Shown in pieces: positions 3,391-19,857 of a stretch of DNA of 64,000 nt (the first letter of the stretch is position 1; every line of letters starts with the position of its first letter). A program made the position numbers and the translations under genes. The stretch is taken from contig NZ_CP007220.1 in assembly GCF_001632805.1 (NCBI RefSeq), positions 1,364,001-1,428,000 on the forward strand. The letters are read 5' to 3'. The DNA is from Mycobacteroides chelonae CCUG 47445 (lineage in GTDB: Bacteria; Actinomycetota; Actinomycetes; Mycobacteriales; Mycobacteriaceae). Under the pieces are notes generated by a model. That model was not told the origin of the DNA, searched no databases, and saw only the letters and a list, made by a program, of their open reading frames with translations.

Positions 3391-3483
3391 GAGCACACCG
3401 TAGCGGGTCGGCAGATCAATTCACTTCTGTCACAGCTGTTTCAGGGCATGGCTGGGTGCCGATGGGCGGGATTAGCGTCCGAA

Positions 3484-4016
3484 CATGTATTCGATTGGGG
3501 TGTTGGGGGCTGCGGTTGATGCCTTCTGTGCTGATGCGATCGATGCGTTGAGCGCTTCCGAGGCGTTGGCGGTGTTGGCCCGGTCAGAGTGGTGCAGCGT
3601 CGGCTTTGCGCTGCTGGGCTGGGGTTGGCGCCCGCGGTGATCACCCAAGCCTCGCCGGTTGAACTCGGTGGTACCTCGCATGCCGATGTTTTGTCTGGGC
3701 GGTTGCATGTCAGTAAGGGGGCGGCGCCGGATCGCTGATGCTGATCGGTTGGCAACCCGACGGGCGGTGACCGGTGAGGTGTTGGCGCCCGTGTTGCCCC
3801 GCACCGCTGCGGCCTTTCAGCGGGGTGAGATCGGGGGCGAGCACGTGCGGATCGTGCGGCAGCCCCCGTTGCCCAGGCTGCCGGGACGCCCGCCCCCGAT
3901 CACGAAAGCCACCAACAGGCCCGCGCCGAGTGCGTCGCCGCTCGACGCAAGTAAGCCGCCGCGCTCGCCGACCCGCACGCCATGGGCGAGGCATTGGCCG
4001 CCTGGCTAGCCGTCGT
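3484..4016 (+). pseudogene. DUF222 (13E12-type, HNH endonuclease) relic
   Basis: Remains of a DUF222/REP13E12-family gene read in three frames. Frame one from ATG 3484 gives MYSIGVLGAAVDAFCADAID, with an ALSASEALAVLARSE segment, then stops at 3639-3641. Another frame then reads ELGGTSHADVLSGRLHVSKG, and a third reads RRIADADRLATRRAVTGEVL followed by GEIGGEHVRIVR, all typical of the DUF222 domain. A last frame gives AALADPHAMGEALAAWL after an in-frame TAA. At least two frameshifts plus stops and no C-terminal HNH domain mean it is dead. Such genes occur in many copies in mycobacteria, and some serve as phage attachment sites. Confidence 0.7.
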
Positions 4017-4109
4017 CTGACGCTAGTAGGGGCCATTGGCTCTCCCATCCCTTGTACTGCCGTGGTTCCTCCTGTCACCAGGTGGTGCGATTTGTCGGCG
4101 GGAGTCGGT

Positions 4110-4379: not shown

Positions 4380-4524
4380 TTCTGCTATCAGGTTCACGGC
4401 GAGTGATCGCCAAGTGCCAACGTTGTCACCTGATCGAAGTTCGAATCTATCGCCAACTGGCAGAGCCATTTTCGGCTCGCCTTGAGCGAACCAGACGGCA
4501 AAGATGAAAGGCACTCTGATACCC

Positions 4525-5007
4525 ATGAGCAATCTGCTTAGCTACGACCAGGTTCACACCATTGTGCGTGAGGAATTGGCCGAGGTGCTCGGCATCGAGA
4601 CCGAGGAAGTCACGACGGCGCCGATGGCTGACCAGGGCGTAGAGTCACTCGACATCGTAGAACTCCGGCGCAATCTGGAGTCGAAGTTCCGCGTTACCTT
4701 CCCGCGCAGCAATGTTCTCAGCGCTCTCGCTGATGAGCTTGGAGGCAAGGACCGCGTCTACGACGCAGAAGGTCGGATCACCAAACTGGCTGAAGGCGCG
4801 TTGTATCAATCGGCGTTCGGCTACACGGGCGACGACTTCCAGGCCGGTGCTTGGCCGCACGAGGTTTCGGGGGCGACAACGACCGCCCATTGGGCGTCGA
4901 TTGCGCATCGCCTCCTCAACCCTTCGGCTGGTCCGGTCACCGGCGATGAACTTCTGGTCGCCGATGTGCGGGAAGCACTTACTCAGGCCAATTCGGCTGT
5001 CGCATAG
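4525..5007 (+). CDS. Acyl carrier protein with C-terminal extension
   Basis: Carrier for the growing acyl chain of the cluster. The four-helix ACP domain spans roughly residues 4-75, with the phosphopantetheine serine in GVESLDIVEL (Ser41 from this start; Glu replaces the usual Asp before Ser). A tail of about 80 residues follows, containing YQSAFGYTGDDFQ and TTTAHWASIAHRLLNP. Typical stand-alone ACPs have only 75-90 residues, so 160 is unusual. ATG 4525 (MSNLLSYDQ) looks like the natural N-terminus; an in-frame ATG at 4504 would add 7 residues, and neither has a strong ribosome site. It is the first gene of the plus-strand cluster, 26 bases before the first ketosynthase. Confidence 0.82.
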   Translation: MSNLLSYDQVHTIVREELAEVLGIETEEVTTAPMADQGVESLDIVELRRNLESKFRVTFPRSNVLSALADELGGKDRVYDAEGRITKLAEGALYQSAFGYTGDDFQAGAWPHEVSGATTTAHWASIAHRLLNPSAGPVTGDELLVADVREALTQANSAVA

Positions 5008-5033
5008 CGCCTTTAGCTAAAGCATCTTCGCAG

Positions 5034-6347
5034 ATGGAGCTACAGAAACAGTCACCTGATGACGACGATGTAGTCATCACAGGGATTGGACTTGTCGCGG
5101 GTACGGTTACCGATCCCGAGGAGCTATTTTGGCAGTTGAACGACGGTGCCTCCTTCATCCGGCAGCACCAGGACCATCGCGATGCTGAGTTGCCCGCGTC
5201 GGTTTCCGGGCACGTAGATGAGGAAACCGTGCGCAAGCTGGCGAGTGCCTTGCCGGAGCAGGCGGCTCGGGTTGGTGCAGCTGGTGTAATCGGATGGCAT
5301 GCGGCAGTGGAGGCTTGGAAGCGCAGTGGCCTGCCTAACCTTGCGGGCAGCGACCGGGTCGGTGTGTTTGCCGCGTGCAACAAGCTCGCGTTCGCGCCGG
5401 ACACACTCGCGGATCTGTCTCGGCTCTATGACCGGCAAGCCGGCACGTTCGACCTCGACGCCTACCTGGACCATCGCGAGGCCGTATCGGATCTTCCGGA
5501 TGATCTTCTGCAGTTTCTTCCGGATACGCTGACCGCCTCTCTGGCCGAGTATTTCGGCCTCGGTGGACCACTGGTGACTCATGCGGAGGCGTGTGCTGCG
5601 GGCGGTGTGGCGATCGGCAGCGGCTACCGGCATATTCGCTCCGGCGAATTGGATGTGGCGCTGGTCGGTGGCGCAGAGCGACTGACTACCTACAGCATCG
5701 TCACGGCTTTCGCTGCGCTCGGCGCGCTCGCCCCCACTGGTGACAAACCAAGCGCCGAGATAAGCAGGCCATTCGATAAGGCTCGCAACGGTTTCGTCAT
5801 CGCCGACGGCGCCGCATTCCTTGTGCTGGAACGACGCTCGCACGCCGAAGCGCGTGGTGCACAGGCGCTGGCAAGAGTCGCCGGCTACACGGGCACCGCC
5901 GAAGCAGTACGGATAACCTCAAGCGAGCGGGACGGTGCGACATACGCGGCATGTATGCGTGCCGCGATCGCTGATGCCGGTCTGAGTCCGTCAGACATAC
6001 ATCATGTGAACGCTCACGGGACGGGTACGCAAGCCAACGACGAGTGCGAAGCTGCAGCTCTGCACTTGGTGTTCGGTGCCGACGCAGCCTCAATTCCGTT
6101 GACCAGCACCAAGTCCTCGCTCGGTCATGGATTTGCGGCAAGCGGCGCGATCGAAGCCGTGCTGTCTGCGATGAGCTTGCGTGAACAGGTTATTCCGCCC
6201 ACGCTGAATTTCAGTGAGCCGGACGATGTCACCAAAGGGCTCGACGTAGTCACCAAGGCCCGGCACTGTGAATTCGACACCGTGCTCTCCAACTCCTTCG
6301 GCTTTGGCGGCATGAACTGCACACTAATCCTGGCAAAGGAAGCGTGA
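5034..6347 (+). CDS. Beta-ketoacyl synthase (KS-alpha 1), FabF-like
   Basis: Condensing enzyme of 437 residues expected to extend an ACP-bound chain with malonyl-ACP. The catalytic set is intact: Cys187 in AEACAAGG, His328 in NAHGTGT, and Lys360 and His365 in KSSLGHG, with C-terminal NSFGFGGMNC. N-terminal VVITGIGLV is the usual thiolase-fold start. The next gene encodes a catalytically dead homologue only 6 bases downstream, the arrangement of KS-alpha/chain-length-factor pairs in type II PKSs. Alternative: an ordinary FabF-type enzyme, but the context argues against primary fatty acid synthesis, which mycobacteria carry out with FAS-I and KasA/KasB. Confidence 0.9.
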   Translation: MELQKQSPDDDDVVITGIGLVAGTVTDPEELFWQLNDGASFIRQHQDHRDAELPASVSGHVDEETVRKLASALPEQAARVGAAGVIGWHAAVEAWKRSGLPNLAGSDRVGVFAACNKLAFAPDTLADLSRLYDRQAGTFDLDAYLDHREAVSDLPDDLLQFLPDTLTASLAEYFGLGGPLVTHAEACAAGGVAIGSGYRHIRSGELDVALVGGAERLTTYSIVTAFAALGALAPTGDKPSAEISRPFDKARNGFVIADGAAFLVLERRSHAEARGAQALARVAGYTGTAEAVRITSSERDGATYAACMRAAIADAGLSPSDIHHVNAHGTGTQANDECEAAALHLVFGADAASIPLTSTKSSLGHGFAASGAIEAVLSAMSLREQVIPPTLNFSEPDDVTKGLDVVTKARHCEFDTVLSNSFGFGGMNCTLILAKEA

Positions 6348-6353
6348 CACTCG

Positions 6354-7496
6354 ATGAATCAGCGGTTGGCGGTAGGACTGTGTAATCCAGGCTTGTATTC
6401 CGCAACCGGGCTCGGCGTGGAGGCCGTATGGGAAGCACTGCGAATAGGAAAAAAGAGCACTGTCCCAAACGAATTCATGTTCGGACCGTGGTCCGAGATT
6501 CCTGAAGTCTTCGCCGTTCCCGATCCAGATGCATCCACGCTTGGTATCCACCGAAAAGCACTGCGCACGACGGTGAAACAAACTCGCTTGGCGATGTATG
6601 GGGCCCAACTGTCACTGAAGGGCATCTCGGATGTTGGCCGCCCTGAGTGGGGCGCCTATCTCGGCCTACCTATGGTTCTCAGTCCGCTACTGCCGCAATG
6701 TGATACGCCTGACCTTGGCGAGGTGGCGCAAGACCCCGAGAAGATCGCCGAGCTGTATCTTCGAGATATTCCACCGTTCTTCGCGCTAACAGATTCGAAC
6801 AACACGGTGGCTGGCCATATCGCAATCCTGTTTGGGTTGACCGGCCCCACGTCGGTGTATTCGCCCTTCTCCGACGCAGGCATGCAGGCGCTGATCGAAG
6901 GTGCACTCGCAGTTGCGGAAGGCGACTGTGAGACTGCGTTGGTCGGCGCGGTAAGCCCGTCTATATCCCCTTGGTTGGCATTGCAATACGACGATCTGGA
7001 CTGGAACGGAGCGATCCCCGGCGAAGCGGCGGCATTCTTTAGCGTCGGGCAGTCCAGCGATGTTGTACTTACGGGCTACAGCCGCGGGTTCGCTACCAGT
7101 CAGAATCGCCCCGAGGTGCTTGCGGAGACGCTGCGAAATGCGTTGCGCATGGCCGAATTATCGGTTGAGGACGTGGGCTGGATACTGGCCGACAGCCCAT
7201 GGACAGACGAGGTGGCTCACGCTCAGCATGCCGCGATTAGTGGCGTGTTCAACGATCAGGCGCCGGTGTTCTCCGCGGAGCAGGCTATCGGAGTTACCGG
7301 ACCGGCACAGCCCTTGGTGCACGTGTTGTTGGCCCGGCACGGACTGCTTCGCGGGTTGCGGCTGCTCCCGGCGAACGGAAACGGCGACGATGCCGTGGCC
7401 GAAGAATCACTGTCGAACAATCAGGCGGTTGTGGTGCTCAGTTGCGGTGTCCAAGGACAGGTTTGCGCTGTCGTAGTGGAGAAGGTGGCGCGATGA
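6354..7496 (+). CDS. Ketosynthase-like protein lacking the catalytic triad (KS-beta 1)
   Basis: Thiolase-fold homologue of 380 residues that cannot condense by the normal chemistry. At the active-site Cys position it reads SPFSDAGMQAL, giving Ser173. The NAHGTGT histidine region is replaced by LADSPWTDE, and the Lys-His motif by AIGVTGPAQP. The frame is intact, sits 6 bases after KS-alpha 1 and overlaps the next start (ATGA), so it is a maintained gene. By analogy with chain length factors it probably dimerises with KS-alpha 1 to shape the chain cavity. It is more divergent than usual CLFs and lacks their Gln; a separate structural role is possible. Confidence 0.75.
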   Translation: MNQRLAVGLCNPGLYSATGLGVEAVWEALRIGKKSTVPNEFMFGPWSEIPEVFAVPDPDASTLGIHRKALRTTVKQTRLAMYGAQLSLKGISDVGRPEWGAYLGLPMVLSPLLPQCDTPDLGEVAQDPEKIAELYLRDIPPFFALTDSNNTVAGHIAILFGLTGPTSVYSPFSDAGMQALIEGALAVAEGDCETALVGAVSPSISPWLALQYDDLDWNGAIPGEAAAFFSVGQSSDVVLTGYSRGFATSQNRPEVLAETLRNALRMAELSVEDVGWILADSPWTDEVAHAQHAAISGVFNDQAPVFSAEQAIGVTGPAQPLVHVLLARHGLLRGLRLLPANGNGDDAVAEESLSNNQAVVVLSCGVQGQVCAVVVEKVAR

Positions 7497-8782
7497 GCGA
7501 TGTGAACCGGCCCCGGCACGGCAATCGTGTATTGGTGACGGGCCTTGGCGTGGTCTGTGGCCTTGGCATGAACTGGCAGTCCATGTGGGATGGATTGGTA
7601 AACGGGCGTTCGGCAATACAGGCATGGTCGCCGCCCGATGTTCCGAACTTCCCCGTCGGCTATGCGGCACCGGTAGACGACCAAGCGTTTACCGCGTTGT
7701 TTCCCGATTTCGGTGCGCCGATGGAGAGGCGCACCCGGTTTGGCCTCGCGGCCGCGCAGCAAGCACTGGAGGACGCCGGTGTGACGAACGCTGAGGCACT
7801 GGGCCGCGTCGGTGTTTCGATCGCCTCGGAGATGCCAGAACGTGAATCGGGAGAGTTGTTGAGTGCGTATGTCGATGGCGTCGTGGACTGGAAACGCGTA
7901 CACGAACAACAGATCGGCCTTGACCGGTCGCACGCGCCGTTGGCCACCGGCGATGCCTTGGCGACCGAAATCGCCACGCGCTCTGGCCTAGCTGGTCCCA
8001 CGCTGAACCTCAATACGGCGTGCGCCGGAGCAACACACGCACTCGGGCACGGCTTCCGGATGATCCGGCGCGGGGAAACGGATGCCGTTATCGCCGGGGG
8101 AGCGGTTAGCCCACTGAATCTGCCGATAATGACGAGTCTGTACCTGCTCGGCGCCCCATCAACATCAAAACTCTACGGCGACCGGCTATGTCGGGCGTTT
8201 GACCGCGACCGCAGTGGGATGGTCACCGCCGAGGGGGCAGCAATGGTGCTCTTGGAGAGCGAGTCGTCGGCACTGGCGCGCGGTGCGCACGTGTACGGCG
8301 AGGTGGCGGGGTTCGGCAGCTCGCTGGACGCATATCAGGTCACCGCACCGCACCCGCAAGGAGGCGGGTCGGTTTTGGCGATGCAGCGTGCCCTCGCCGA
8401 TGCTGGAGTCGCCCCGTCCGAGGTGGGTTATGTAAGTGCACACGGTACATCCACTCCGCTGAGCGACGCGGCCGAGACGGCGGCGATCAAGGAAGTGTTC
8501 CGCTCCGGTGAGCATTACCGCTCGCTCATGGTCAGCTCTATCAAGACGATGCTGGGCCACATGCTCGCCGCGGCGGGCGCCCAGCAGCTGATATCGACGG
8601 TGCTGTCGCTGCGCGACGGAATCATCCCGCCGACGCTCAACCTGGAGAACCCCGACCCGGCCTGTGACCTTGATTATGTGCCGGGTCAGGCCCGCAAGGC
8701 CGATGTCGAGGTGGCAATCAACAACTCGCTCGGGTTCGGTGGGCTCAACGCTGCTCTGGTGGTACGCCGTTATGACAACTGA
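7493..8782 (+). CDS. Beta-ketoacyl synthase (KS-alpha 2), FabF-like
   Basis: Second full condensing enzyme, 429 residues. Catalytic residues are present: Cys177 in NTACAGATHA, His317 in SAHGTST, Lys351 and His356 in KTMLGHMLAAAG; the C-terminus has NNSLGFGGLNAAL. Start ATG 7493 is chosen because it overlaps the preceding stop by 4 bases and follows GGAGAAGG at 7478-7485; a longer frame upstream lies inside KS-beta 1. It ends overlapping KS-beta 2 by 11 bases, so it and that protein are probably made in equal amounts and form the second KS/CLF pair. Confidence 0.9.
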   Translation: MSDVNRPRHGNRVLVTGLGVVCGLGMNWQSMWDGLVNGRSAIQAWSPPDVPNFPVGYAAPVDDQAFTALFPDFGAPMERRTRFGLAAAQQALEDAGVTNAEALGRVGVSIASEMPERESGELLSAYVDGVVDWKRVHEQQIGLDRSHAPLATGDALATEIATRSGLAGPTLNLNTACAGATHALGHGFRMIRRGETDAVIAGGAVSPLNLPIMTSLYLLGAPSTSKLYGDRLCRAFDRDRSGMVTAEGAAMVLLESESSALARGAHVYGEVAGFGSSLDAYQVTAPHPQGGGSVLAMQRALADAGVAPSEVGYVSAHGTSTPLSDAAETAAIKEVFRSGEHYRSLMVSSIKTMLGHMLAAAGAQQLISTVLSLRDGIIPPTLNLENPDPACDLDYVPGQARKADVEVAINNSLGFGGLNAALVVRRYDN

Positions 8783-10070
8783 ACATTCAGATCAATCAAT
8801 AGTCGTGACGGGAACCGGCGTGGTACTGCCGACGGGTCGTCACATCACGCCCCTGTGGGATGCCTGGACTGACGGAAAACCGGCTATTTCGCCGTACCTC
8901 GATCCGCTGGTCTCCACGCGCCGGATCACGCATTTCGGCCATGTACCGGCCGAGGTCGTGGAGCAAAGCCGGGAAGCGGTGCCACACAGACAGCGGAAGT
9001 ACGGCACCCCGTACACCTTCAACGCGGTATTGGCAGCTCAAGATGCGATCACCGAGGCTGGACCAGGCTGGGCGACCATCGATGATCATCGACGCGGACT
9101 ATTTGTCGCACAAGACAATTCCACTACACCTAGCATCGGAACCTTCGCGCGAGGACTGACACAACTGGGTGAGGGCCGCGAAATCGATTTCGGCGCAGTG
9201 ACAAACGAGCTACTCATGAACGGAGGGCTTGATCCGTTCACCATCATTCATGCCCTTAACAACAACACGCTCGCGCTGGTAAGCATCGTCCATGAGCTCC
9301 GCGGGGATTGCGCAGCGCTGGTCCAGGGCGAATCTGCGGCAGTCACCGCGCTGCAACGAGCCAAGTTCAGTCTGCGTAACGGGCATTGCGATATCGCGTT
9401 GGTGGTGGGTGCAGGCAGCTACAACGAACCACTCACGCTGGCCGGGCATTACCGCCTGGGCCATCTCAGTAAAGACGCTGGCGGCGACGGCCAGCTGCGG
9501 AGTTTCGATAGTGCGCAAGACGGAACGATCCTGAGTGAGGGCGCGGTAGCGCTGGTGTTGGAACGCTCGCGAGACGCGACCGCGCGCGGTGCCACACCGC
9601 TGGTCGAATTATGTGACACGGTTGTCGTTTCGGGCAGCCGCGGCGCCGGGCCTGCACACGTCGCTGGCCGTTATGAAGGCATGCTGCACCAGAACGGGAT
9701 TGGCACAGAGCAACTCGGTGCGGTGCTGGCCGACGGCAAGGCGGCCCCCGGCTACGACACCACCGAGATCGAACTGCTCACCACCTTGTTCAAGGGCAGT
9801 GGCATACCCGTATCGACCGTTCGGCCGATAACCGGTACACCAGGTGCGGCCGGCCCGCTGGTCGATCTGGCACTCGCTGGGCAAATTTTCACCGAAAATA
9901 CTCTGCCGGCAATCGCCCATCTCGGAGATCCGCTGTCTGATCAGCTCGAGTTCGTACGGGGCGGACCCCGAAAGCAGCGGATCGACTCAGTTCTGGGCAC
10001 CTATACCAACTTCAACGGAATCTCCAGTGCGGTACTGGCCAAACGTCCAGACACAGCGGGCGCGGCGTGA
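8772..10070 (+). CDS. Chain-length-factor-like ketosynthase (KS-beta 2)
   Basis: Non-catalytic partner of a ketosynthase, 432 residues. The Cys position falls in VQGESAAVTAL and is most simply Glu187 (actinorhodin-type CLFs have Gln there). The His motif is replaced by LADGKAAPGYDTTEIELL, which strongly recalls the ADG..PE.D.AE stretch of aromatic PKS chain length factors. The Lys-His motif is replaced by TVRPITGTPGAAGP. N-terminal IVVTGTGVVLPTG keeps the fold signature. ATG 8772 lies inside the end of KS-alpha 2 (11-base overlap). Its likely role is to set chain length in a KS-alpha 2/KS-beta 2 heterodimer. Confidence 0.82.
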   Translation: MTTEHSDQSIVVTGTGVVLPTGRHITPLWDAWTDGKPAISPYLDPLVSTRRITHFGHVPAEVVEQSREAVPHRQRKYGTPYTFNAVLAAQDAITEAGPGWATIDDHRRGLFVAQDNSTTPSIGTFARGLTQLGEGREIDFGAVTNELLMNGGLDPFTIIHALNNNTLALVSIVHELRGDCAALVQGESAAVTALQRAKFSLRNGHCDIALVVGAGSYNEPLTLAGHYRLGHLSKDAGGDGQLRSFDSAQDGTILSEGAVALVLERSRDATARGATPLVELCDTVVVSGSRGAGPAHVAGRYEGMLHQNGIGTEQLGAVLADGKAAPGYDTTEIELLTTLFKGSGIPVSTVRPITGTPGAAGPLVDLALAGQIFTENTLPAIAHLGDPLSDQLEFVRGGPRKQRIDSVLGTYTNFNGISSAVLAKRPDTAGAA

Positions 10071-10108
10071 ACATCAGGACCACTTGAGCATCACAAACAG
10101 GGAGAAAC

Positions 10109-10879
10109 GTGTCTTTGAGCGGCAAAGAGTTTGAAGGTCAGGTTGCACTTGTCACCGGGGCCTCACGCGGAATCGGACGTTCCATCGCATTGGCGCTTGC
10201 CGAACATGGGGCGGATATCGCAGTGCACTACGGAAACTCGAAACCGGCAGCAGAAGAGGTCGCCGAAAAAATATCCGCGTTGGGTAGAAGGGTCCTCCTC
10301 TGCCAGGGCGACATAGCCGATCCGGCAGTACCCGAGCTGCTAGCGGATACCGTGCACGCCGAATTCGGCCGGATCGACGTCCTTGTGAACAACGCGGGCA
10401 CCCACGGAGCCGGACTGCTCCTTGACATCGCCCCGGATTATCTCGAGGAGACGGTGGCGACCAACCTCCTGGGCCCCATCCGGATGACGAAAGCTGTCGT
10501 CGCGCACATGCTGGGCCAGCGATACGGACGAATCATCAATATTTCATCCGTGGCCGCCGGCAAGCCCGATAGCGGCCAATCTAGTTATGCCGCAACCAAA
10601 GGTGGCTTGGAGTCGTTCACCAAAGCCATAGCCGTTGAGTTCGCGTCGCGAAACATCATCTCGAACGCGGTGGCGCCAGGTGTCATCTACACCGACATGG
10701 CGGAGATTACGCGTACTCATGTCCCTGCCACCTTCGAACGCTTGAAGGCCCAGATACTGGCCAAAGACTTTGCAAAGCCGGAAGTAGTTGCCAACGCCGT
10801 CTTGTACCTCGCGAGCCCCCACAACACCTACATCACGGGCGAGGTTCTGCATATCGACGGCGGATACAAGATGAAATAG
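10109..10879 (+). CDS. 3-ketoacyl-ACP reductase, FabG-like SDR
   Basis: NAD(P)H-dependent reductase expected to convert the 3-keto group to 3-hydroxyl after each condensation. 256 residues; TGASRGIG at 16-23, NNAG at 94-97, Ser147, Tyr160-xxx-Lys164 and C-terminal ITGEVLHIDGGYKMK, close to the FabG signature. GTG 10109 follows GGGAG at 10100-10104; a TTG at 10115 would have better ribosome spacing, so the first two residues are uncertain. It is separated from KS-beta 2 by 38 bases and is the only reductive enzyme in the cluster: no dehydratase or enoyl reductase is present. Confidence 0.88.
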   Translation: MSLSGKEFEGQVALVTGASRGIGRSIALALAEHGADIAVHYGNSKPAAEEVAEKISALGRRVLLCQGDIADPAVPELLADTVHAEFGRIDVLVNNAGTHGAGLLLDIAPDYLEETVATNLLGPIRMTKAVVAHMLGQRYGRIINISSVAAGKPDSGQSSYAATKGGLESFTKAIAVEFASRNIISNAVAPGVIYTDMAEITRTHVPATFERLKAQILAKDFAKPEVVANAVLYLASPHNTYITGEVLHIDGGYKMK

Positions 10880-10976
10880 CGATCAAAGCCGAAGAGCGCG
10901 AACGCATCACAATTTCTCACACAGCATCCGCTGGGTTTCATCACAGACGGACGCCTCGACAGACTAAGGAGGACAG

Positions 10977-11726
10977 GTGCGCAGGACCGATGAGTTACTG
11001 CCTGGCAATCCTTGGCTGCGCAGGCTCCGCGACGGGAGCGGTGCGACGCGGGTGATCTGTTTCCCCCATGCAGGCGGTTCCGCCAGTTACTTCAGGCGTT
11101 TGGCGAAGATGCTGCCCGTCGACACCGAAGTGCTCGCCGTGCAATACCCGGGACGGGGAAATAGATTGCGCGAGCGGCCGATAGAGTCAGTGCCCCTGCT
11201 CGCAGAAGGCATCGCATCGGCCCTACCCGCTAGCGATAAGCAAGACGTACTGTTCGGTCACAGCCTCGGTGGCCATATAGCGTTCGAGGTGGCGCAGAGG
11301 CTGCCTGTTCGCAAACTTGTGGTGTCCGGGATAGTGGCACCGTCCAAGGTGGTCGATCTCGGTTATCGCCTACTCAACGAGGCCGAAGGAATCGAAAGAA
11401 TAGCGGCTCTGGGTGGCCTGCCGCCCGAGATCCTCAACGACCCCTCGGCCCTCAGCGCTCTTTTACCGGTGCTGCGAAGCGATTTCACGGCCGGCGAGAC
11501 ATACACCCCACCGCCCGACGCGACCGTCGGTTGCGATATCACCGCGCTCATCGGTGACCACGACGTCTTGGCCCCACAGGAGCGGGTGAGTTCGTGGCGC
11601 GAACACACACGTGGCAATTTCGATCTGCAGGTATTCCGCGGCGGCGGGCATTTCTACTTGGAAGACCACATCGACGAAGTAAGCGCCTGCCTCGTTCGGG
11701 CGTTCAACGTCAGCCCAATCATTTAG
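10977..11726 (+). CDS. Type II thioesterase (GrsT/RifR-like)
   Basis: Alpha/beta hydrolase of 249 residues that removes stalled or wrong acyl groups from the carrier protein, or releases the finished chain. Signature features: CFPHAGGSASYFR near 28-40, QYPGRGNR near 57-63, nucleophile Ser96 in GHSLGGH, Asp196 in IGDHDVL and His225 in GGGHFYL. GTG 10977 has a near-perfect AAGGAGGA ribosome site at 10966-10973. The 97-base gap before it is the largest in the cluster and could hold an internal promoter, though none was evident. Confidence 0.9.
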   Translation: MRRTDELLPGNPWLRRLRDGSGATRVICFPHAGGSASYFRRLAKMLPVDTEVLAVQYPGRGNRLRERPIESVPLLAEGIASALPASDKQDVLFGHSLGGHIAFEVAQRLPVRKLVVSGIVAPSKVVDLGYRLLNEAEGIERIAALGGLPPEILNDPSALSALLPVLRSDFTAGETYTPPPDATVGCDITALIGDHDVLAPQERVSSWREHTRGNFDLQVFRGGGHFYLEDHIDEVSACLVRAFNVSPII

Positions 11727-11732
11727 GCGACG

Positions 11733-12728
11733 ATGCTAAAAGCTACTGCCGGAGAATTTCTGACCCCACTGGGAAAGCGAGGAAATGTGTACAACTACAT
11801 CGTCACGTCCCCCGGGCAAGGTGTGCAGAAGCCGGGCATGCTCGATCCTTGGCTAACCCTGTCCGCTGCGCGCGATCGCATCGCTATCTGGTCTGACGCG
11901 GTCAAGTTCGACTTGGTGACCGCCAGCAGAGATGAGAACTCTTTGCGGGATACCGCCGTCGCTCAGCCTGTCATCATCGCGGCGGCGCTGCTGTCACTGA
12001 GCTTGCTGCGCGAGAAAGTCGATATCTCCGGAGACAGCGCGCTGTTCGCCGGCCACTCGGTGGGCGAGCTCGCTGCTGGGGTGGGCGCGGGCTATCTGAC
12101 TGATGAGGCCGCCCTGACGTTGGCCGGCGTGAGGGGCGGTGCGATGTCATCGGCATGCGCCCTCGCCGCTACCGGTATGGCCGCGGTGATGCCGACGAAA
12201 AGGGGCGGCGCGTCAGATGACGAGATTGTGGCGAAGACGCATGAACATGGCCTCTCAACGGCCAACCGTAATGGCTGCAACCAGTTCGTCGTCGCCGGAC
12301 CCCTCGACGCTGTCGAGCATTTTGCGGATGCGCCACCCGAGGGCATGCGCGTCATGAAACTGGATGTGGCGGGCGCCTTTCACACATCGGCGATGGATTC
12401 CGCGATATCACCGTTTGCGGACGCAGTGAATAGCTGTCCGGTTTCGGCTCCGTCATCTCCCATGATCGGCAATAGCGACGGAGCGATCATCGCAGGTCCA
12501 TCGGACTTCAAGAAGCGGTTGATCGCCCAGATCAACTCGGTGGTCCGTTGGGACCTCTGCGCTGCCGCGATCGCCGCGGCAGGAACCGCCGACACCCTGT
12601 TCATCGAACTAGCACCGAGCGGACCGTTGACCCGTCTGGCGGAACGTTTGGACGCAAAATTTCAGACTGTCGCCATCCGCGAGCCAGGGGACGTGGAGCT
12701 GCTTTCCGGCGAGTTTGCGATTGATTAG
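11733..12728 (+). CDS. Malonyl-CoA:ACP transacylase, FabD-like
   Basis: Acyltransferase of 331 residues that should load malonyl units from CoA onto the cluster's ACP. Seen: SPGQG near 26-30 (the FabD FPGQG motif), nucleophile Ser109 in GHSVGEL, Arg134 in GVRGGAM (binds the malonyl carboxylate), and His217 in VAGAFHT. The first 18 residues have no family counterpart, so translation may begin at GTG 11787; ATG 11733 is given because it lies 6 bases after the thioesterase stop. A dedicated MAT supports a self-contained type II system. Confidence 0.87.
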   Translation: MLKATAGEFLTPLGKRGNVYNYIVTSPGQGVQKPGMLDPWLTLSAARDRIAIWSDAVKFDLVTASRDENSLRDTAVAQPVIIAAALLSLSLLREKVDISGDSALFAGHSVGELAAGVGAGYLTDEAALTLAGVRGGAMSSACALAATGMAAVMPTKRGGASDDEIVAKTHEHGLSTANRNGCNQFVVAGPLDAVEHFADAPPEGMRVMKLDVAGAFHTSAMDSAISPFADAVNSCPVSAPSSPMIGNSDGAIIAGPSDFKKRLIAQINSVVRWDLCAAAIAAAGTADTLFIELAPSGPLTRLAERLDAKFQTVAIREPGDVELLSGEFAID

Positions 12729-12785
12729 CCAAGTTCCGTGCGAACACTATGCGTAACAGGGCGAATAGCCAAGAAAGGAGGCAAC

Positions 12786-14075
12786 GTGACAGACACGCGA
12801 CCGCATCAGGACACGGTGGACGCGCCTGGCGAGCCAATTCGTCCACTTAGCCGCCTGGAGACATACTTCACTTTTGGGTTTGGTCATTTCGGCGGTCAGT
12901 CAATGCTTATCTCGGGGGATTTAAATATCGAGGCGCTGAATGACACTTGTATTGAGATGCAGCTCCGCCACGAATCCCTGCGAAGCATCATCCGTAAGAA
13001 TGATCAAGTCCCCGAGTTTGTGGCGACGCACCAACCGCCCAAATCGATCCGCGTATTCGAGGGAGAAGACCTTGAGACCCGGTCCACTGGGCGTGAGGCC
13101 GTATTCGATCAGACGCAGCAGCTTTTCTATGTCGATCTGCTTCTCGGGGACGGCCAGGCCCGCATAACGTTCTTCGTCCACCACTCAATCGCGGACGGCC
13201 GTCACGGATCTGCGATCCTCATCGAGTTTTGGAGCCTTTACGTTCAGCGCATCGAGGAAGGGCAGTTCCCGCCGATCCTCACCCAAAAATTCCCACAGTC
13301 GGGGGAGTACTTCCTGAACCGCACTCAGTATCCGGGCGCGGATCCGAGCGTGAAGGCGGATGAAGTATTACGTGTGCCGCTGTGGGATGAGGCCGCGCTT
13401 GCCCAGAAACTCCCACCCCCTCGGGAGCCCGCGCTCGCCAAACAGATGACGTTGGAAAAACTCGGCAGAGCAAGCCTCGCCCGCCTCGGCAATATCGAAA
13501 GCATCTCGATCAACGCGCTTGTATCCGCAGCTCTGATTCGTGCGCATGTTCGCGCTGGCGACCCAGTCCCACTGTATTTCTATCCGGTAGATCTTCGCGA
13601 CTGTGTGGCGCCTCCGGTTGCCCCCACCGAAGCGACCAACTTGCTCTCCAACGCATGGTTCGGCGATGTTGAGATCGGGCCGGATCTCGTCACACTCGCC
13701 AGAAAGATACATGTCCAATTCGACAGGGACTTAGCGGACGGCACAATTCACCGAACGCGAGTTAGAAATGAACCAACGAAGCTTCTCGCTGATAAGTCTT
13801 TTGGTGGCGCAATTCATGCCACTCAGCTAGGTCGAATTCGTGTTCCCCGCCTACCGGGGAATCTGGTAGTAGACGACATCACATCCAGTCATGCATCGGC
13901 ATTGGGGTCAGCTATTTATACGTTCTTGTACGGTCGGGAAGTTTCGGTGTACACGATTGACTCGCTGAATCAACGACTGCGGGTGGGTTTCCTAGCCGGA
14001 AGTTACGAAAAGAGCGATGAGCTTCTTGCGTACATCGAAGACGAACTGACCGCGGCGATAGACGCTCGCATCTGA
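12786..14075 (+). CDS. PapA-like acyltransferase (condensation-domain fold)
   Basis: Transferase of 429 residues. FVHHSIADG places the catalytic HHxxxDG motif at His132-His133 and Asp137. Stand-alone proteins of this kind in mycobacteria (PapA family) esterify hydroxyls of trehalose, phthiocerol or glycopeptidolipid with polyketide or fatty acyl groups, often directly from a carrier protein. GTG 12786 follows GAAAGGAGG (12773-12781). Its stop shares one base with the MmpS start (TGATG). Placement between the chain-building genes and the exporter suggests it attaches the finished chain to an alcohol acceptor before export. Donor and acceptor are unknown. Confidence 0.8.
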   Translation: MTDTRPHQDTVDAPGEPIRPLSRLETYFTFGFGHFGGQSMLISGDLNIEALNDTCIEMQLRHESLRSIIRKNDQVPEFVATHQPPKSIRVFEGEDLETRSTGREAVFDQTQQLFYVDLLLGDGQARITFFVHHSIADGRHGSAILIEFWSLYVQRIEEGQFPPILTQKFPQSGEYFLNRTQYPGADPSVKADEVLRVPLWDEAALAQKLPPPREPALAKQMTLEKLGRASLARLGNIESISINALVSAALIRAHVRAGDPVPLYFYPVDLRDCVAPPVAPTEATNLLSNAWFGDVEIGPDLVTLARKIHVQFDRDLADGTIHRTRVRNEPTKLLADKSFGGAIHATQLGRIRVPRLPGNLVVDDITSSHASALGSAIYTFLYGREVSVYTIDSLNQRLRVGFLAGSYEKSDELLAYIEDELTAAIDARI

Positions 14076-14533
14076 TGGCGTTCCCTCGAGGGCTCGGTGC
14101 GTTCGGGCGCAAGGTCATCCGACACGGCTGGTTGGTCGTGGTGATAGCGGTCGTGGTCTCGCTTGCGTCCGTATCCGTGGTGAAGGTGCGCGCGCTATCT
14201 GCCCCGTCGGGGCCGGTGGTGAGTCCGAAGGGTGCACCGAAGCTCCCGTCGTTCGCTCCCAAGCATGTGGTCTACATGGTGTTCGGGGAATCCGCGGGCA
14301 CAGGGACGCTCACTTACCTAGACGTCGACAGCAGACCACACCGTGTCGACTTCACGACGTTGCCTTGGACGCACGAAGAAGTGACGACCCGCACGTCGAT
14401 GTTGGCCAATCTCATGGCGCAGTCGACGGGGGATCAACTCGGTTGCAGGATCATCGTCAACGGCGAGGTTCGCGACGAACAGGTCCAGAGTCGCGAGCAG
14501 GGATCGGTCGCATGCAAGGTGAAGTCGGCATGA
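14075..14533 (+). CDS. MmpS family membrane protein
   Basis: Accessory protein of 152 residues for an MmpL transporter. One N-terminal membrane segment (about 17-40, WLVVVIAVVVSLASVSVVKV) anchors a periplasmic beta-rich domain with VVYMVFGESAGTGTLTYLD and a late conserved Cys pair (LGCRIIVNG, SVACKV). MmpS proteins are known to scaffold synthesis and export of glycopeptidolipids and siderophores with their cognate MmpL. It directly follows the acyltransferase, sharing one base, and precedes mmpL by 24 bases. Confidence 0.9.
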   Translation: MAFPRGLGAFGRKVIRHGWLVVVIAVVVSLASVSVVKVRALSAPSGPVVSPKGAPKLPSFAPKHVVYMVFGESAGTGTLTYLDVDSRPHRVDFTTLPWTHEEVTTRTSMLANLMAQSTGDQLGCRIIVNGEVRDEQVQSREQGSVACKVKSA

Positions 14534-14557
14534 CCACCGCACGAGACGACGTGACAC

Positions 14558-17440
14558 GTGGGTAACAAGCATGTGGGGCCGGACCGCGGCGAAAGGCGCC
14601 CTTTCATCGCGCACGCTGTTCGGGTGCTCGCGATCCCGATCGTCCTCTTCTGGGTCGGCGCTGCCGTTGCGGCTAGCTTGTTAGTCCCCAAGCTCGACGG
14701 CGTGACAAAGCAACACGCAGGGCCGATGGTTCCCCTGGATGCGCCTTCGCAGCGCGCAATGCTGCACATTGGCGAGAAGTTTCAAGAATCGACTTCCACG
14801 AGCCTCGCCTACATCCTGCTGGAGACCGAGGGCCGAATACTGGGGGATGCCGACCACAAGTACTACGACGAGTTGATCCGTTTGCTCGACGCGGACAAGC
14901 AGCATGTTCAGTTCATCATGAACATGTGGGGTAAGCCGATCACGGCCGCGGGCAGTCAGAGCCCCGACAACAAGGCCGCCTACGTGATGCTGCGTTTGGT
15001 CGGCGATATCGGCGAGGCCGCCGCCAACGAGTCCACCATCGCACTACGCAAGACGGTGCAAAATACCCTTGAGCGAACCCCGCCCCCACCCGGACTCAAG
15101 GTGTACGTCTCCGGGGCGGCGCCGCTGTCTGCGGACCTGCTTGACGCCGGCGACAAAAGCATGAAGCGGGTGCTGCTTTTTACGATTGCCGTCATCATCA
15201 TCATGCTTGTCCTGGTTTACCGGTCCATTTCGTGCGTGATATTGATATTACTCACCGTCGCCTTCGAATTCACGGTGTCTAACGGCATTGTTTCCTTTTT
15301 CGTGGTTCACAACGTCATCGGCATTTCGACATTCGCGACCAGCATGGTCGAGTCACTTATCATTGCAGCCGGAACAGATTACGGGATATTTCTGCTCGGC
15401 AGATATCACGAGGCACGTAATGCGGGCGAGGATCGGGACCGCGCGTTTTACACAACGTTTCACGGAGTGTCGCACGTCATTTTGGGGTCGGGGCTCACCA
15501 TTGCGGGGGCGTGCCTCTGCCTTGGTTTTGCGCGGCTTGGCTACTTCAATACGATGGGGCCGGCCTGCGCCATCGCCATGTTGGTCACGGTCGCAGCGGC
15601 GTTGACGCTCGGCCCGGCTCTGCTCGCAATCGCAAGTAAATTTGGCCTTCTCGACCCGAGACCGACCCGACAGTCCCGGGGATGGCGCAGGGTAGGCACG
15701 ATCGTCGTGCGCTGGCCAAAGCCAGTCCTCGTTGCCTCAAGTGCAGCAGTATTGGTGGGGGCCGTCTTTCTACCGTCCTACCGAGTGAGCTATAACGAGC
15801 GGGCCTTCCAGCCGGTGAACACGCCAGCCAACGCCGGATTCATGGCCTCGGACCGACATTTTGCGGGCGGGAAACTGAACTCGGAAATGCTCTTGATCGA
15901 GTCCGACCACGATATGCGAAACCCTGCCGATTTCATCTCACTCGATCATATCGCCAAGACCATCTTCCACACTCCGGGGATTGCCCAAGTTCAAGGCATC
16001 ACCCGGCCGGAGGGCCGTCCGATGGAGCGCGCGTCAATCGCCAACATACTGGCGGGACAAGGTAGTAGCAGTGGTCAACAGCTGCCATTTACCGAGAACC
16101 AAGTAGCAGATTTAGATAACCAAGTGGCCGTCATGGATCACACCATCTCGATCATGCAGACAGTTATTGGGCTCATGGATCAAATGACGCAACTCACCCA
16201 TGACATGGTGGGGACAATGGAGGAGATGAAGGCACTCGCTGACCAGGTGGAAATAAACATCAGCGCCGTCGACGATTTCCTCAGACCTATTAAGAACTAC
16301 TACTACTGGGAACCACACTGCGCGGACATCCCCATTTGCTGGATGGGGCGGTCGATGTTCGAGTCGATGGACAGCATCGACGGGATGACGGCACTGACAG
16401 CGGAGGCGCTGGCCTCCATGCAGGTCATGGACCAGCTGCTGCCCCGCATGCTTACGCAGACACGCATGGCATTAAGTGACATGACCATCATGCGCGGGAT
16501 GATGGTCAAGTCACGCGGCACCCAGGCGCTGAACACCTACACCGCGGCCGACGACGCAAACGACATGATCGATATCGGTCAGGATTTTGACGATTCTCGT
16601 AATGACGACCTCTTCTATGCGCCGAAATATATCTTCAGCAACACCGACTTCCAGGTCGCTCTCCGGTTTCTTGTTTCGCCGGACGGTACGGCGGCGAGGT
16701 TCATCATCAACCATGACGGTGAGGCCCTGAGCCCCGAGGGGGTAGCCCATGTTAATGCCATCGAAAAGGCCGCGTATGAGGGGCTGAAAGGCACATCTCT
16801 CGCCGGGGCGAAGATCTACCTCGGGGGCTCGGCCTCGAATTATCGAGACATCGAACAATTTGTAAAGTCCGATCTGCTGATCGCGGCTATCGCCTCGTTC
16901 ACTTTGATCTTCGTCATAATGCTGATCATCACGAGGAGCGTAATTGCCGCGTGCACCATTATCGGCACCGTAGCCTTCTCCTTCTCGGGAGCTTTTGGAT
17001 TGGGCGTATTGATTTGGCAGCACATAGTTGGCTTGAACCTGCACTGGATGGTCCTGCCTCTTGCCTTTATCCTCTTGGTCGCGGTGGGTTCGGATTATAA
17101 TCTGCTGCTAATCGCACGCATGAAGGAAGAATTGCACGGCGGAATCCAGACTGGGATCATACGGTCGGTCGGGTCAACCGGTGGTGTTGTGACAGCCGCC
17201 GGTTTGGTATTCGCATTCACCATGCTGTCCATGGTGCCGAACGATCTACGCGCCATCTCGCAAGTGGGCTCGATTATCTGTGTAGGCCTTTTGCTTGACA
17301 CCCTGATTGTGCGCTCGTTCATCGTCCCAGCTATCGCCAGGATTTTGGGCCCATGGTTCTGGTGGCCGCGGATCGTGCGTTGGCGCCCGCCGGCGGGTAC
17401 GTCCGGCACCACCCTCGCGAATGCCCGGAATGGAACATGA
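14558..17440 (+). CDS. MmpL family RND lipid transporter
   Basis: Twelve-pass transporter of 960 residues that uses the proton gradient to move lipids across the inner membrane. N-terminal GERRPFIAHAVRVLAIPIVL is typical. GTDYGIFLLGRY in TM4 (Asp274-Tyr275) and GSDYNLLLIARM in TM10 (Asp846-Tyr847) are the proton-relay pairs. A Met-rich helical hairpin (about 526-655) forms the periplasmic coiled coil seen in the MmpL4/MmpL5/GPL-type subgroup. GTG 14558 is used; GTG 14573 is possible. The stop overlaps the MFS start (ATGA). It probably exports the cluster's product. Confidence 0.93.
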   Translation: MGNKHVGPDRGERRPFIAHAVRVLAIPIVLFWVGAAVAASLLVPKLDGVTKQHAGPMVPLDAPSQRAMLHIGEKFQESTSTSLAYILLETEGRILGDADHKYYDELIRLLDADKQHVQFIMNMWGKPITAAGSQSPDNKAAYVMLRLVGDIGEAAANESTIALRKTVQNTLERTPPPPGLKVYVSGAAPLSADLLDAGDKSMKRVLLFTIAVIIIMLVLVYRSISCVILILLTVAFEFTVSNGIVSFFVVHNVIGISTFATSMVESLIIAAGTDYGIFLLGRYHEARNAGEDRDRAFYTTFHGVSHVILGSGLTIAGACLCLGFARLGYFNTMGPACAIAMLVTVAAALTLGPALLAIASKFGLLDPRPTRQSRGWRRVGTIVVRWPKPVLVASSAAVLVGAVFLPSYRVSYNERAFQPVNTPANAGFMASDRHFAGGKLNSEMLLIESDHDMRNPADFISLDHIAKTIFHTPGIAQVQGITRPEGRPMERASIANILAGQGSSSGQQLPFTENQVADLDNQVAVMDHTISIMQTVIGLMDQMTQLTHDMVGTMEEMKALADQVEINISAVDDFLRPIKNYYYWEPHCADIPICWMGRSMFESMDSIDGMTALTAEALASMQVMDQLLPRMLTQTRMALSDMTIMRGMMVKSRGTQALNTYTAADDANDMIDIGQDFDDSRNDDLFYAPKYIFSNTDFQVALRFLVSPDGTAARFIINHDGEALSPEGVAHVNAIEKAAYEGLKGTSLAGAKIYLGGSASNYRDIEQFVKSDLLIAAIASFTLIFVIMLIITRSVIAACTIIGTVAFSFSGAFGLGVLIWQHIVGLNLHWMVLPLAFILLVAVGSDYNLLLIARMKEELHGGIQTGIIRSVGSTGGVVTAAGLVFAFTMLSMVPNDLRAISQVGSIICVGLLLDTLIVRSFIVPAIARILGPWFWWPRIVRWRPPAGTSGTTLANARNGT

Positions 17441-18687
17441 TGGCGATGTCTACCGCTGAATCGCAGCAGGACGGCGCCGCAGGCAGGATCCGTGCCAAGT
17501 CCCGAGAGTTTCGCGTCGCGGCAGTTGGCCTGCTCCTGGCCTCGATGATTGGACCTGCGCAGCTATATTGCATCCAGGGAATTCTGCCGCAGGTCGCGGA
17601 GGGGCTGCAGATCTCTGCGGGCGACAGCCAACTTATTTTCTTGGCGGCATTTGCCGGTTTTGCGCTGGGATTGATCCCCATCAGCCTGTTGTCCGAACGC
17701 TATGGCAGGCGGAGCATACTGCTGGCGTCGTCAACGCTTGGAACGTTGATATACCTGCTTCTGGTGTTCTGCCACAACCTCACTGAAATCGTCTTGTTGA
17801 GAGGGCTTCAGGGAGTCCTGCTGGCCGGTGTTTCTGCCATTGTTATGGCATACATAGGGGAAGAGTTCGAACCCCAGGCCGTTACCCCTGCGATGGGGAT
17901 ATACGCGGCAGGAAACGCCCTCGGGTCACTCTTGGGCCAAATGTTGCCGGCCTGGATTGTTGGGGGCACGGGTTCATGGCGGTTGGCACTCGGCGTGCTG
18001 GCCGTGCTACTGCTTGGAGTAATTGTTGTTTCCGCTATCACACTGCCGCGCTCGAACTTCTTCGTATCCAGCGATATTTCGTACGCCATGGAAGCCAGGC
18101 TCTTCCTCTCGCACCTTTCGAACCCTCGGTTGCTCGTAATATATCTGCTGATATTTTGCTTCATGGGGGCGATTATTTCGATATTCAATGCCTTGCCCTT
18201 CAGGGTCGAATCGCCACCATTCAATATATCGCCGAGTATGTACGGCACATTCTTTCTGGTTATTCTGGTGGGCGTTTTCACCGCGAAGACCTCGGGTACC
18301 GTAGCCGCGCGGATCGGAATCAGGAACACGCTACTTCTGGCTGTTGTCTTGATGCTGGCCGGAGTAGCGCTGCTAGCCGTTCCCGTGGTGTGGATCATTG
18401 TGCTTGGAGCAGCGCTTGTCACCGGGGGAGGGTTTGCGGGGTACACGTGCCTCACGAGCCTGTCGGCGACGATCGCGCATAAAGGTAGGGCGCAGGCGTC
18501 CTCGCTTTTTCTCGCGTCGAGCTTCAGTGGGAGCGCCGTGTTCGGGCTCGTCGGTAGCCGCGTGCTCACGGATGCGGGATGGGCTGGTCTGTTGATATAC
18601 ATCAGCGGATTGATGGGCCTCGGTTTCTTGCTGGCGCTCACTGTCCGCGACGCACCACCCGCCGATGCCGAAGGTAGGAAATCGTGA
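17437..18687 (+). CDS. MFS transporter, YnfM-like
   Basis: Inner-membrane exporter of 416 residues with about 12 membrane segments. ERYGRRSILLASS in the TM2-3 loop and LRGLQGVLLAGVSAIVMAYIGEE in TM4-5 resemble the YnfM drug/metabolite exporter subgroup. ATG 17437 overlaps the mmpL stop by 4 bases; ATG 17440 or 17446 may also serve. A second exporter after MmpL suggests transport of a precursor, a small-molecule by-product or self-protection. Several stretches use A/T-ending codons more than the flanking housekeeping genes do. Confidence 0.85.
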   Translation: MMAMSTAESQQDGAAGRIRAKSREFRVAAVGLLLASMIGPAQLYCIQGILPQVAEGLQISAGDSQLIFLAAFAGFALGLIPISLLSERYGRRSILLASSTLGTLIYLLLVFCHNLTEIVLLRGLQGVLLAGVSAIVMAYIGEEFEPQAVTPAMGIYAAGNALGSLLGQMLPAWIVGGTGSWRLALGVLAVLLLGVIVVSAITLPRSNFFVSSDISYAMEARLFLSHLSNPRLLVIYLLIFCFMGAIISIFNALPFRVESPPFNISPSMYGTFFLVILVGVFTAKTSGTVAARIGIRNTLLLAVVLMLAGVALLAVPVVWIIVLGAALVTGGGFAGYTCLTSLSATIAHKGRAQASSLFLASSFSGSAVFGLVGSRVLTDAGWAGLLIYISGLMGLGFLLALTVRDAPPADAEGRKS

Positions 18688-19634
18688 TCAGGCCCATTGA
18701 TGCTGTCTTGAAGTCTGTCCTCGATGCGAGCCCGGCGGTGCATCTTGATCGGCCGGCGGATTTGTCTCTGGCACGTGAGTCCCGCCGACATGCTGTCCGC
18801 GGTGAGGCGCCGTCGACCGCGGTTGGCCGTGTGAAGGACATCGTGATTCCGGCGACCGACGCACCCCCCATCGCGGCGCGCGTCTACTGGCCGCTGGGCT
18901 TCGAAGACGCCGGAGAGCTCCCACTTGCCGTCTACTACCACGGCGGCGGTTTTGCGCTGGGCAGCATCGATACTCACGACTGGGTGGCACGTTCGATATG
19001 CGCACATATCGAAGCGGTGGTGGTCTCCGTGGATTACCGCCTCGCGCCCGAAAATCCCTACCCTGCCGCTGTCGACGATGCATTCGTCGCACTCACTTGG
19101 GCGGCGGAGCATGCCACGGAATTGGGCGCGGACCCAGCCAGAATCGCGGTAGCCGGCGATTCTGCCGGGGGTAACCTCGCCACCGTAGCCGCCCAGCTGG
19201 CCAAAAGCCGCGGTGGTCCACATCTGAAGTTTCAACTGCTCTGGTACCCGGGCACCACCAGCGATCTCTCCTTGCCGTCGGTCATCGAGAATGCCGCCGG
19301 CCCGGTTCTCTCCCGCGACATGATGAGGATCTTCGGCCAGGCATATCTCGGTGAATTATCCGAAACCGCTGACCCGACAGCACTACCGTTCACCGTTGCG
19401 CCGGTCAACGGGGACCTCGAGGGTCTGCCCCCGGTGTACATCGCCACCGCGCAACACGACCCGCTTCGAGACGACGGCCGGATCTACGCGGCACTTCTCG
19501 CGGACGCGGGGGTAGCGGTCCAGCTCCGCAACGCGGACGCCCTGGTCCATGGCTATCTTGATTTCGCCAGGATTGTCCCGGCAGCGAAAGAGGAGTTCTT
19601 ACTTTCCCTGGACGCCTGCAAGGCCGTGTTGTAG
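18684..19634 (+). CDS. Alpha/beta hydrolase, hormone-sensitive-lipase family
   Basis: Esterase or lipase of 316 residues. HGGGFALG at 86-93 forms the oxyanion hole, GDSAGGN holds nucleophile Ser160, Asp259 lies in AQHDPLRDD and His289 in LVHGYLDF. No signal peptide is visible, so it is cytoplasmic. GTG 18684 overlaps the MFS stop (GTGA), making it the last gene of the cluster. It could hydrolyse or transfer an acyl ester on the product; it could also be an ordinary lipid esterase carried along. The 223 bases after it hold a loose inverted repeat (CTTGCCC at 19642, GGGCAAG at 19687) and no gene. Confidence 0.87.
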   Translation: MIRPIDAVLKSVLDASPAVHLDRPADLSLARESRRHAVRGEAPSTAVGRVKDIVIPATDAPPIAARVYWPLGFEDAGELPLAVYYHGGGFALGSIDTHDWVARSICAHIEAVVVSVDYRLAPENPYPAAVDDAFVALTWAAEHATELGADPARIAVAGDSAGGNLATVAAQLAKSRGGPHLKFQLLWYPGTTSDLSLPSVIENAAGPVLSRDMMRIFGQAYLGELSETADPTALPFTVAPVNGDLEGLPPVYIATAQHDPLRDDGRIYAALLADAGVAVQLRNADALVHGYLDFARIVPAAKEEFLLSLDACKAVL

Positions 19635-19768: not shown

Positions 19769-19857
19769 GGTCCGACGTTCAGTTCCCTACGGGGCAAACA
19801 ATTTTCGTGGGTGCGCGGCGGGCGATAGTCCTTTGCCCACTCGTGGAATCGTCCTCG

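What the first reader, a model, noticed from the sequence alone, without database searches (positions are those of the whole stretch)
4525..19634. Type II PKS-like assembly line joined to PapA acyltransferase and MmpS/MmpL export
Thirteen closely spaced or overlapping plus-strand genes encode an ACP, two intact and two catalytically dead ketosynthases, a ketoreductase, thioesterase, malonyl transacylase, HHxxxDG acyltransferase, MmpS, MmpL, an MFS exporter and an esterase. Mycobacterial exported polyketide lipids (sulfolipid, PDIM, trehalose polyphleates, glycopeptidolipids) are normally built by large type I PKSs or NRPSs and then handled by Pap and MmpL proteins. Here the chain-building part is discrete enzymes. 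I infer a new envelope lipid or polyketide; I know of no described mycobacterial pathway of this form.
Basis: partly seen in the sequence, partly recalled or inferred. Interest (0 to 1): 0.88.

Follow-up and report, generated by a model that had tools for sequence, protein, structure and literature searches.

The report
Unusual exported-polyketide cluster in Mycobacterium chelonae
A horizontally shared set of thirteen genes in Mycobacterium chelonae and a few close relatives looks like a small-enzyme assembly line for an unknown polyketide or fatty-chain ester together with its own exporter, a combination we did not find described for mycobacteria.

Summary
Thirteen plus-strand genes (4504/4525-19634) encode an extended ACP, KS, KS-like, KS, KS-like, SDR ketoreductase, thioesterase, malonyl transacylase, PapA, MmpS, MmpL, MFS and esterase. 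The two KS-like proteins lack the catalytic Cys and both His but are under purifying selection. The genome length equals that of M. chelonae CCUG 47445. The first dead KS occurs in 4 of 396 same-genus genomes. G050 has an empty site with an intact DUF222/HNH gene; G1151 also lacks the cluster. From ACP to MmpL, dS to two other species is 0.03-0.35 against 0.66-0.95 in flanking genes: recent horizontal sharing. A Photobacterium replicon carries ACP-KS-KS'-KS-KS' in the same order plus an MMPL-family protein; three of four KS sister pairs are well supported, the fourth weakly. Best reading: a four-ketosynthase type II PKS builds an acyl chain, PapA esterifies it, MmpS/MmpL exports it. Gene content, distribution and transfer are shown; product, ester and export are inferred. 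New variant of a known kind.

The parts
3480..3862 (+). 5' remnant of a DUF222/HNH (13E12-type, name recalled) gene, left edge of the island
   Evidence: window 1-3862 aligns at 84% with G050, whose DUF222/HNH gene begins at locus base 9063 and is intact
3959..4021 (+). 3' end of an alpha/beta-hydrolase (DUF6616) gene that is whole in G1177
   Evidence: alignment of the cluster block starts at 3959-3962 in the relatives; same C-terminal residues in L092 ORF 2628-3896
4525..5007 (+). ACP, 160 aa (alternative start 4504), phosphopantetheine site GVESLD plus a C-terminal extension of about 80 aa
   Evidence: PF00550 8e-9; motif and extension similarity to Photobacterium ACP
5034..6347 (+). KS1, ketosynthase with Cys-His-His
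   Evidence: Pfam; motifs
6354..7496 (+). KS2d, ketosynthase-like, Cys to Ser, no catalytic His
   Evidence: Pfam 1e-8; alignment; dN/dS 0.06-0.07
7493..8782 (+). KS3, ketosynthase with Cys-His-His
   Evidence: Pfam; motifs
8772..10070 (+). KS4d, ketosynthase-like, Cys to Glu, no catalytic His
   Evidence: Pfam 2e-22; alignment; second PDB hit is the actinorhodin KS partner 1tqy_B; dN/dS 0.13-0.15
10109..10879 (+). SDR ketoreductase (FabG-like), NNAG and YAATK present
   Evidence: Pfam 4e-58; TIGR01830 228 bits, below its cut-off; motifs
10977..11726 (+). stand-alone thioesterase, GHSLG
   Evidence: PF00975 1e-41; motif
11733..12728 (+). malonyl transacylase-type acyltransferase, GHSVG and AFH
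   Evidence: PF00698 3e-17; fabD and MdcH models below cut-off; motifs
12738..14075 (+). PapA acyltransferase (alternative start 12783), HHSIADG
   Evidence: PapA_C 3e-29; NF006787 547.5 bits, cut-off 396; only PDB hit PapA5 1q9j 2e-33
14075..14533 (+). MmpS
   Evidence: PF05423 7e-35
14558..17440 (+). MmpL RND transporter
   Evidence: PF03176 1e-185; TIGR00833 908.7 bits, cut-off 874.7
17437..18687 (+). MFS transporter
   Evidence: PF07690 4e-38; orthologue at 84% or more only in the four cluster genomes of 35 searched
18684..19634 (+). alpha/beta-hydrolase esterase, HGGG and GDSAG
   Evidence: PF07859 3e-70; LipP1-type lipase model 303 bits, below cut-off 350

Best explanation
A horizontally acquired type II polyketide synthase operon. 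Two ketosynthases (KS1, KS3) probably pair with the two catalytically dead partners (KS2d, KS4d) to extend a chain with malonyl units supplied by the AT, on the dedicated extended ACP. The SDR reduces beta-keto groups. No dehydratase or enoyl reductase lies in the operon, so the chain is either hydroxylated or uses FAS-II enzymes encoded elsewhere. The thioesterase probably edits stalled chains. PapA transfers the finished acyl chain to an alcohol acceptor (sugar, glycolipid or fatty alcohol) and MmpS/MmpL export the ester to the envelope; MFS and esterase are accessory. Shown: gene content, motifs, selection, transfer, shared KS order. Inferred: pairing, product, esterification, export.
For: Complete set of domains in one tight operon. 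Intact motifs in the catalytic enzymes, lost ones in KS2d and KS4d. dN/dS 0.04-0.23 against G1177 and G1200 for all 13 genes, including both dead KS. Same ACP-KS-KS'-KS-KS' order in Photobacterium sp. DA100, with KS1 100/100, KS3 100/99, KS4d 100/98 and KS2d 93/72 sister support. ACP extension similar to the Photobacterium one (score 60, shuffles mean 22.6, 0 of 500 reach it). Precedent for a motif-less KS-like partner forming a working heterodimer: AmcF-AmcG (PMC10698177, passages); KS-CLF plus further KS: aryl polyene ApeO-ApeC and ApeR (PMC8358021, abstract and passages). PapA passes its NCBIfam cut-off, MmpL too.
Against: No product, expression or biochemical data. No dehydratase, enoyl reductase, phosphopantetheinyl transferase, starter-loading enzyme or glycosyltransferase in the operon. 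The Photobacterium stretch gave no match at E 1e-4 to AT, TE, PapA, MmpS or MmpL; its exporter is only family-level MMPL, so export and acylation do not travel with the KS set as orthologues. MFS and esterase have flank-like dS (0.58-0.71), so they do not share the recent history of the core. Long branches are flagged for the Photobacterium KS rows, and win_KS4d scores higher against n316_KS4d than against ph_KS4d by BLAST. Consensus promoter and terminator scans are at chance level.
Confidence: 0.6

Rival explanations
1. The product is a diffusible, secreted metabolite (antibiotic-like, signal or biosurfactant) rather than an envelope lipid; MFS and MmpL both act as effluxers and the esterase or PapA adjusts an acyl group.
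For: An MFS gene overlaps mmpL and is confined to the cluster genomes among 35 searched; narrow, mobile distribution is typical of secondary metabolism (general knowledge); KS relatives lie in secondary-metabolite-like clusters of G316 and G410 with aminotransferase and radical SAM genes.
Against: PapA plus MmpS plus MmpL is the usual gene set of mycobacterial surface lipids (recalled; PapA and MmpL lipids also in PMC7261415, passages).
Confidence: 0.25
2. A specialised side branch of FAS-II: KS1 and KS3 elongate ordinary fatty or meromycolic chains that feed known lipids.
For: KS1 and KS3 score best against FabF-type enzymes; no cyclase, aromatase or dehydratase in the operon.
Against: Both are far below the KasA/KasB cut-off (229 and 225 bits against 560) and lie apart from the genome's own KasA/B-like KS in the tree; dedicated ACP, PapA and exporter.
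Confidence: 0.1
3. A decayed or silent acquisition without present function.
For: No recognisable sigma-70-type promoter above chance; degenerate sequence at the left edge.
Against: All 13 reading frames intact; purifying selection in every gene against two other species; repeated exchange of the core.
Confidence: 0.04

Closest known systems
Four-KS cluster of Photobacterium sp. DA100 (NZ_CP119424.1, uncharacterised, found here)
   Same: ACP of 152 aa with similar extension, KS1, KS2d, KS3, KS4d in the same order, an SDR 46.5% identical, an MMPL-family protein
   Different: Class III aminotransferase fused to a further domain, LolA-like and TetR genes; no AT, TE, PapA or MmpS match at E 1e-4; its KS4d is only 295 aa
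Aryl polyene synthase (ApeO-ApeC, ApeR; PMC8358021, abstract and passages)
   Same: KS-CLF pair plus a further KS with a KR, as discrete enzymes
   Different: Has DH and two ACPs and one dead partner; here two dead partners, one ACP, no DH
Cispentacin synthase AmcF-AmcG (PMC10698177, passages)
   Same: KS with a motif-less KS-like partner working as a heterodimer
   Different: Single pair, with adenylating starter enzyme, DH and aminotransferase; KS1, KS3 and KS4d are below the AmcF model cut-off (182.8, 229.5 and 59.1 bits against 325)
Mycobacterial Pap/MmpL lipids: sulfolipid, PDIM, trehalose polyphleates (recalled; some in PMC7261415, passages)
   Same: PapA acyltransferase with MmpL (and MmpS) in one locus
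   Different: Chain builder there is a large type I PKS (recalled; type I PKS for several lipids in PMC7261415); here discrete KS, KR, AT, TE and ACP

Membership tests
Type II polyketide synthase (broad sense) | Discrete KS with a dead KS-like partner and a separate ACP | tested here: met
   heterodimer itself not testable here
Aromatic type II PKS | KS in the clade of aromatic KS, with cyclase or aromatase | tested here: not met
   No cyclase or aromatase family in the 13 genes; window KS1 and KS3 fall outside the clade of the annotated Streptomyces type II KS
Highly reducing type II PKS and aryl polyene synthase | Dehydratase in the cluster | tested here: not met
   No dehydratase family in the 13 genes
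Cispentacin-type AmcF/AmcG | KS above the NF058662 cut-off | tested here: not met
   182.8, 229.5 and 59.1 bits against 325; KS2d not listed
FAS-II KasA/KasB | KS above the NF005916 cut-off | tested here: not met
   KS1 229 and KS3 225.4 bits against 560
PapA acyltransferases | PapA model above cut-off and HHxxxDG | tested here: met
   NF006787 547.5 bits against 396; HHSIADG
Pap/MmpL-exported lipid loci | PapA with MmpL in one locus | tested here: met
Pap/MmpL-exported lipid loci | Type I PKS as chain builder | tested here: not met
   None among the 13 genes
Pap/MmpL-exported lipid loci | Product is an exported envelope lipid | not testable with these tools
   needs lipid analysis

The most novel reading that the evidence does not exclude
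A distinct subfamily of type II PKS, defined by an extended ACP and two KS/dead-KS pairs (ACP-KS-KS'-KS-KS'), shared across phyla, has been recruited in the M. chelonae group to make a new class of exported acyl ester, giving mycobacteria a discrete-enzyme route to PapA/MmpL surface lipids that moves between species.
Probability: 0.4. Interest if true: 0.8.

Novelty: new variant of a known kind. Interest (0 to 1): 0.64.

Why it matters
If true, exported lipids of mycobacteria are not limited to type I PKS, NRPS and FAS-derived chains, and a surface or secreted product is being exchanged between opportunistic species of the M. chelonae group. It would also define a four-ketosynthase synthase layout, with two dead partners under purifying selection and an extended ACP, that can be tested in vitro.

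Tried and rejected
Plasmid search with KS2d gave 49 records, 45 of them Pantoea; the one Pantoea region that I opened is a lone fabF without a cluster. The Vibrio record of that search was not opened. The Streptomyces region is a canonical-looking type II cluster and served as an outgroup. ACP gave no plasmid match. KS3 at strict thresholds: 13 of 401 family genomes at 1e-68, 2 of 394 class genomes (own and G876) and 1 of 298 order genomes (own) at 1e-80. G876 has an isolated KS3-like gene without matches to the dead KS2d. Aromatic polyketide, aryl polyene, cispentacin and FAS-II membership were rejected on the tests listed. Repeats showed no clear boundary repeats.

Full report
Identity of the window. 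The window is bases 1364001-1428000 of a closed 5,029,817-base genome. [quoted passage not shown] The closest named relative of the cluster is in Mycobacteroides franklinii CV002.

The observation. Thirteen genes run on the plus strand from 4504/4525 to 19634, with gaps of at most 97 bases and overlaps at KS2d/KS3, KS3/KS4d, PapA/MmpS, MmpL/MFS and MFS/esterase. Pfam supports every gene. KS1 and KS3 have the Cys-His-His motifs; the ACP, SDR, thioesterase, AT, PapA and esterase carry their expected motifs (motif meanings are general knowledge). KS2d and KS4d have Ser and Glu at the Cys column and lack both His.

Selection and transfer. Against G1177 and G1200, dN/dS is 0.040-0.227 over the 13 genes; KS2d is 0.063 and 0.073, KS4d 0.130 and 0.150. 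Against the near-identical G088 some ratios reach 0.35, but dS there is only 0.004-0.006. dS for the 11 genes ACP to MmpL is 0.026-0.346 (G1177) and 0.055-0.229 (G1200). The three flanking genes with full or nearly full length plus the partial left MFS gene give 0.80-0.95 (G1177) and 0.66-0.82 (G1200; left gene only 106 codons). The MFS and esterase genes give 0.58-0.71, close to the flanks. So the ACP-MmpL core has been exchanged between species more recently than the species separated, while the MFS-esterase end was not. Even against G088, dS is raised in ACP (0.108) and PapA to MFS (0.035-0.063) compared with 0.003-0.016 in KS1 to AT.

Distribution and site. KS2d is found in 4 of 396 same-genus genomes at E 1e-20: the own genome, G088, G1177 and G1200. 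An earlier draw gave full-length matches in 2 of 148 genomes, the other 123 genomes with a match showing only short weak matches, and 1 of 61 relatives, the own genome. G1200 is identical to the M. franklinii locus over 19,242 bases. A pattern scan of the species genome collection with KS4d gave one locus, M. franklinii (close relatives only). In G050 the two flanks are joined by an intact DUF222/HNH gene, whose first part survives in the window at about 3480-3862. In G1151 the left and right flanks are 1.6 kb apart; the MscS gene region is also unmatched there, so it is a less clean empty site. Neither genome has the ACP. The MFS orthologue (84% or more) is in the four cluster genomes only, of 35 searched; seven others have paralogues of 35% or less. 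GC is 0.569-0.626 over 4001-20000 against 0.649-0.653 to the left, but two other windows of the region are also near 0.605. GC3 of 12 of 13 cluster genes is below the lowest of five flanking genes; MmpS is not.

Relatives of the synthase. On the 2.1-Mb replicon of Photobacterium sp. DA100, tblastn found KS1, KS2d, KS3, KS4d and SDR (46.5%) relatives in the same order. An ACP of 152 aa precedes KS1, and a class III aminotransferase fusion, a second SDR, a LolA-like and an MMPL-family protein follow. AT, TE, PapA, MmpS and MmpL gave no match there at E 1e-4. In a tree of 37 KS rows the window and Photobacterium proteins are sisters: KS1 100/100, KS3 100/99, KS4d 100/98, KS2d 93/72. The program warns of long branches for these rows. 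By BLAST, three of four pairs are reciprocal best hits; win_KS4d prefers n316_KS4d (85.9 against 66.2 bits), although ph_KS4d prefers win_KS4d. The Photobacterium KS4d is short (295 aa). Two genomes of another genus of the family (G316, G410) have a related KS3 and an ACP with a similar extension, with aminotransferase, and in G316 a radical SAM and a phosphopantetheinyl transferase gene, but their KS1 groups with aromatic-type KS. The ACP extension scores 60 against Photobacterium (shuffle mean 22.6) and 48 against G316 (mean 26.3); 0 of 500 shuffles reach either.

Mechanism. I propose two KS/partner pairs acting on the dedicated ACP, with malonyl units from the AT and keto reduction by the SDR. 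Heterodimers of a KS with a motif-less partner are established for AmcF-AmcG (PMC10698177, passages), and KS-CLF with a further KS for aryl polyenes (PMC8358021, abstract and passages). PapA passes its model cut-off and its only PDB relative is PapA5; the next PapA-like protein of the genome is 33% identical over part of the length. MmpL is a typical member, its nearest paralogue in the genome 56% identical. That the chain is esterified and exported is inference. The lack of a dehydratase predicts hydroxyl groups unless FAS-II supplies one.

Known or new. Membership in aromatic type II PKS, highly reducing or aryl polyene PKS, cispentacin-type and KasA/B families fails on tested features. The type II PKS catalogue PMC10132072 has no occurrence of 'mycobact' or 'Photobacterium' in its main text (passages). 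My searches for a mycobacterial pathway of this form returned no such description in what was listed; two searches listed only 15 of 390 and 15 of 60 papers, and subscription journals are not held. I therefore rate it a new variant of a known kind.

Noticed in passing
L064 11010-25114 (Photobacterium sp. DA100): An uncharacterised cluster with extended ACP, four KS, aminotransferase fusion, two SDRs, LolA-like and MMPL proteins.
   Followed up: partly
L059/L060 and L061/L062 (G316, G410): Clusters with related KS3 and extended ACP, flavin enzymes and class III aminotransferase; in G316 also radical SAM, phosphopantetheinyl transferase and ABC transporter genes.
   Followed up: partly
window 3480-4021: Remnants of a DUF222/HNH gene and of the end of an alpha/beta-hydrolase gene at the left edge; in G1177 an AraC/DJ-1 regulator and the whole hydrolase gene lie there.
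   Followed up: partly
window 4525-5007 and 12783-18687 against G088: Raised synonymous divergence in ACP and in PapA to MFS between two otherwise near-identical genomes, a sign of recombination inside the cluster.
   Followed up: no
window 21724-25388: Pair of ABC transporter genes on the minus strand, also present in cluster-free G1151, so not part of the cluster.
   Followed up: no
window 50211-50247: L31-Actinobacteria ribosomal protein leader (Rfam RF03158).
   Followed up: no
NZ_CP118918.1 123775-124425: A Mycobacteroides chelonae plasmid encodes a protein 30% identical to part of PapA.
   Followed up: no
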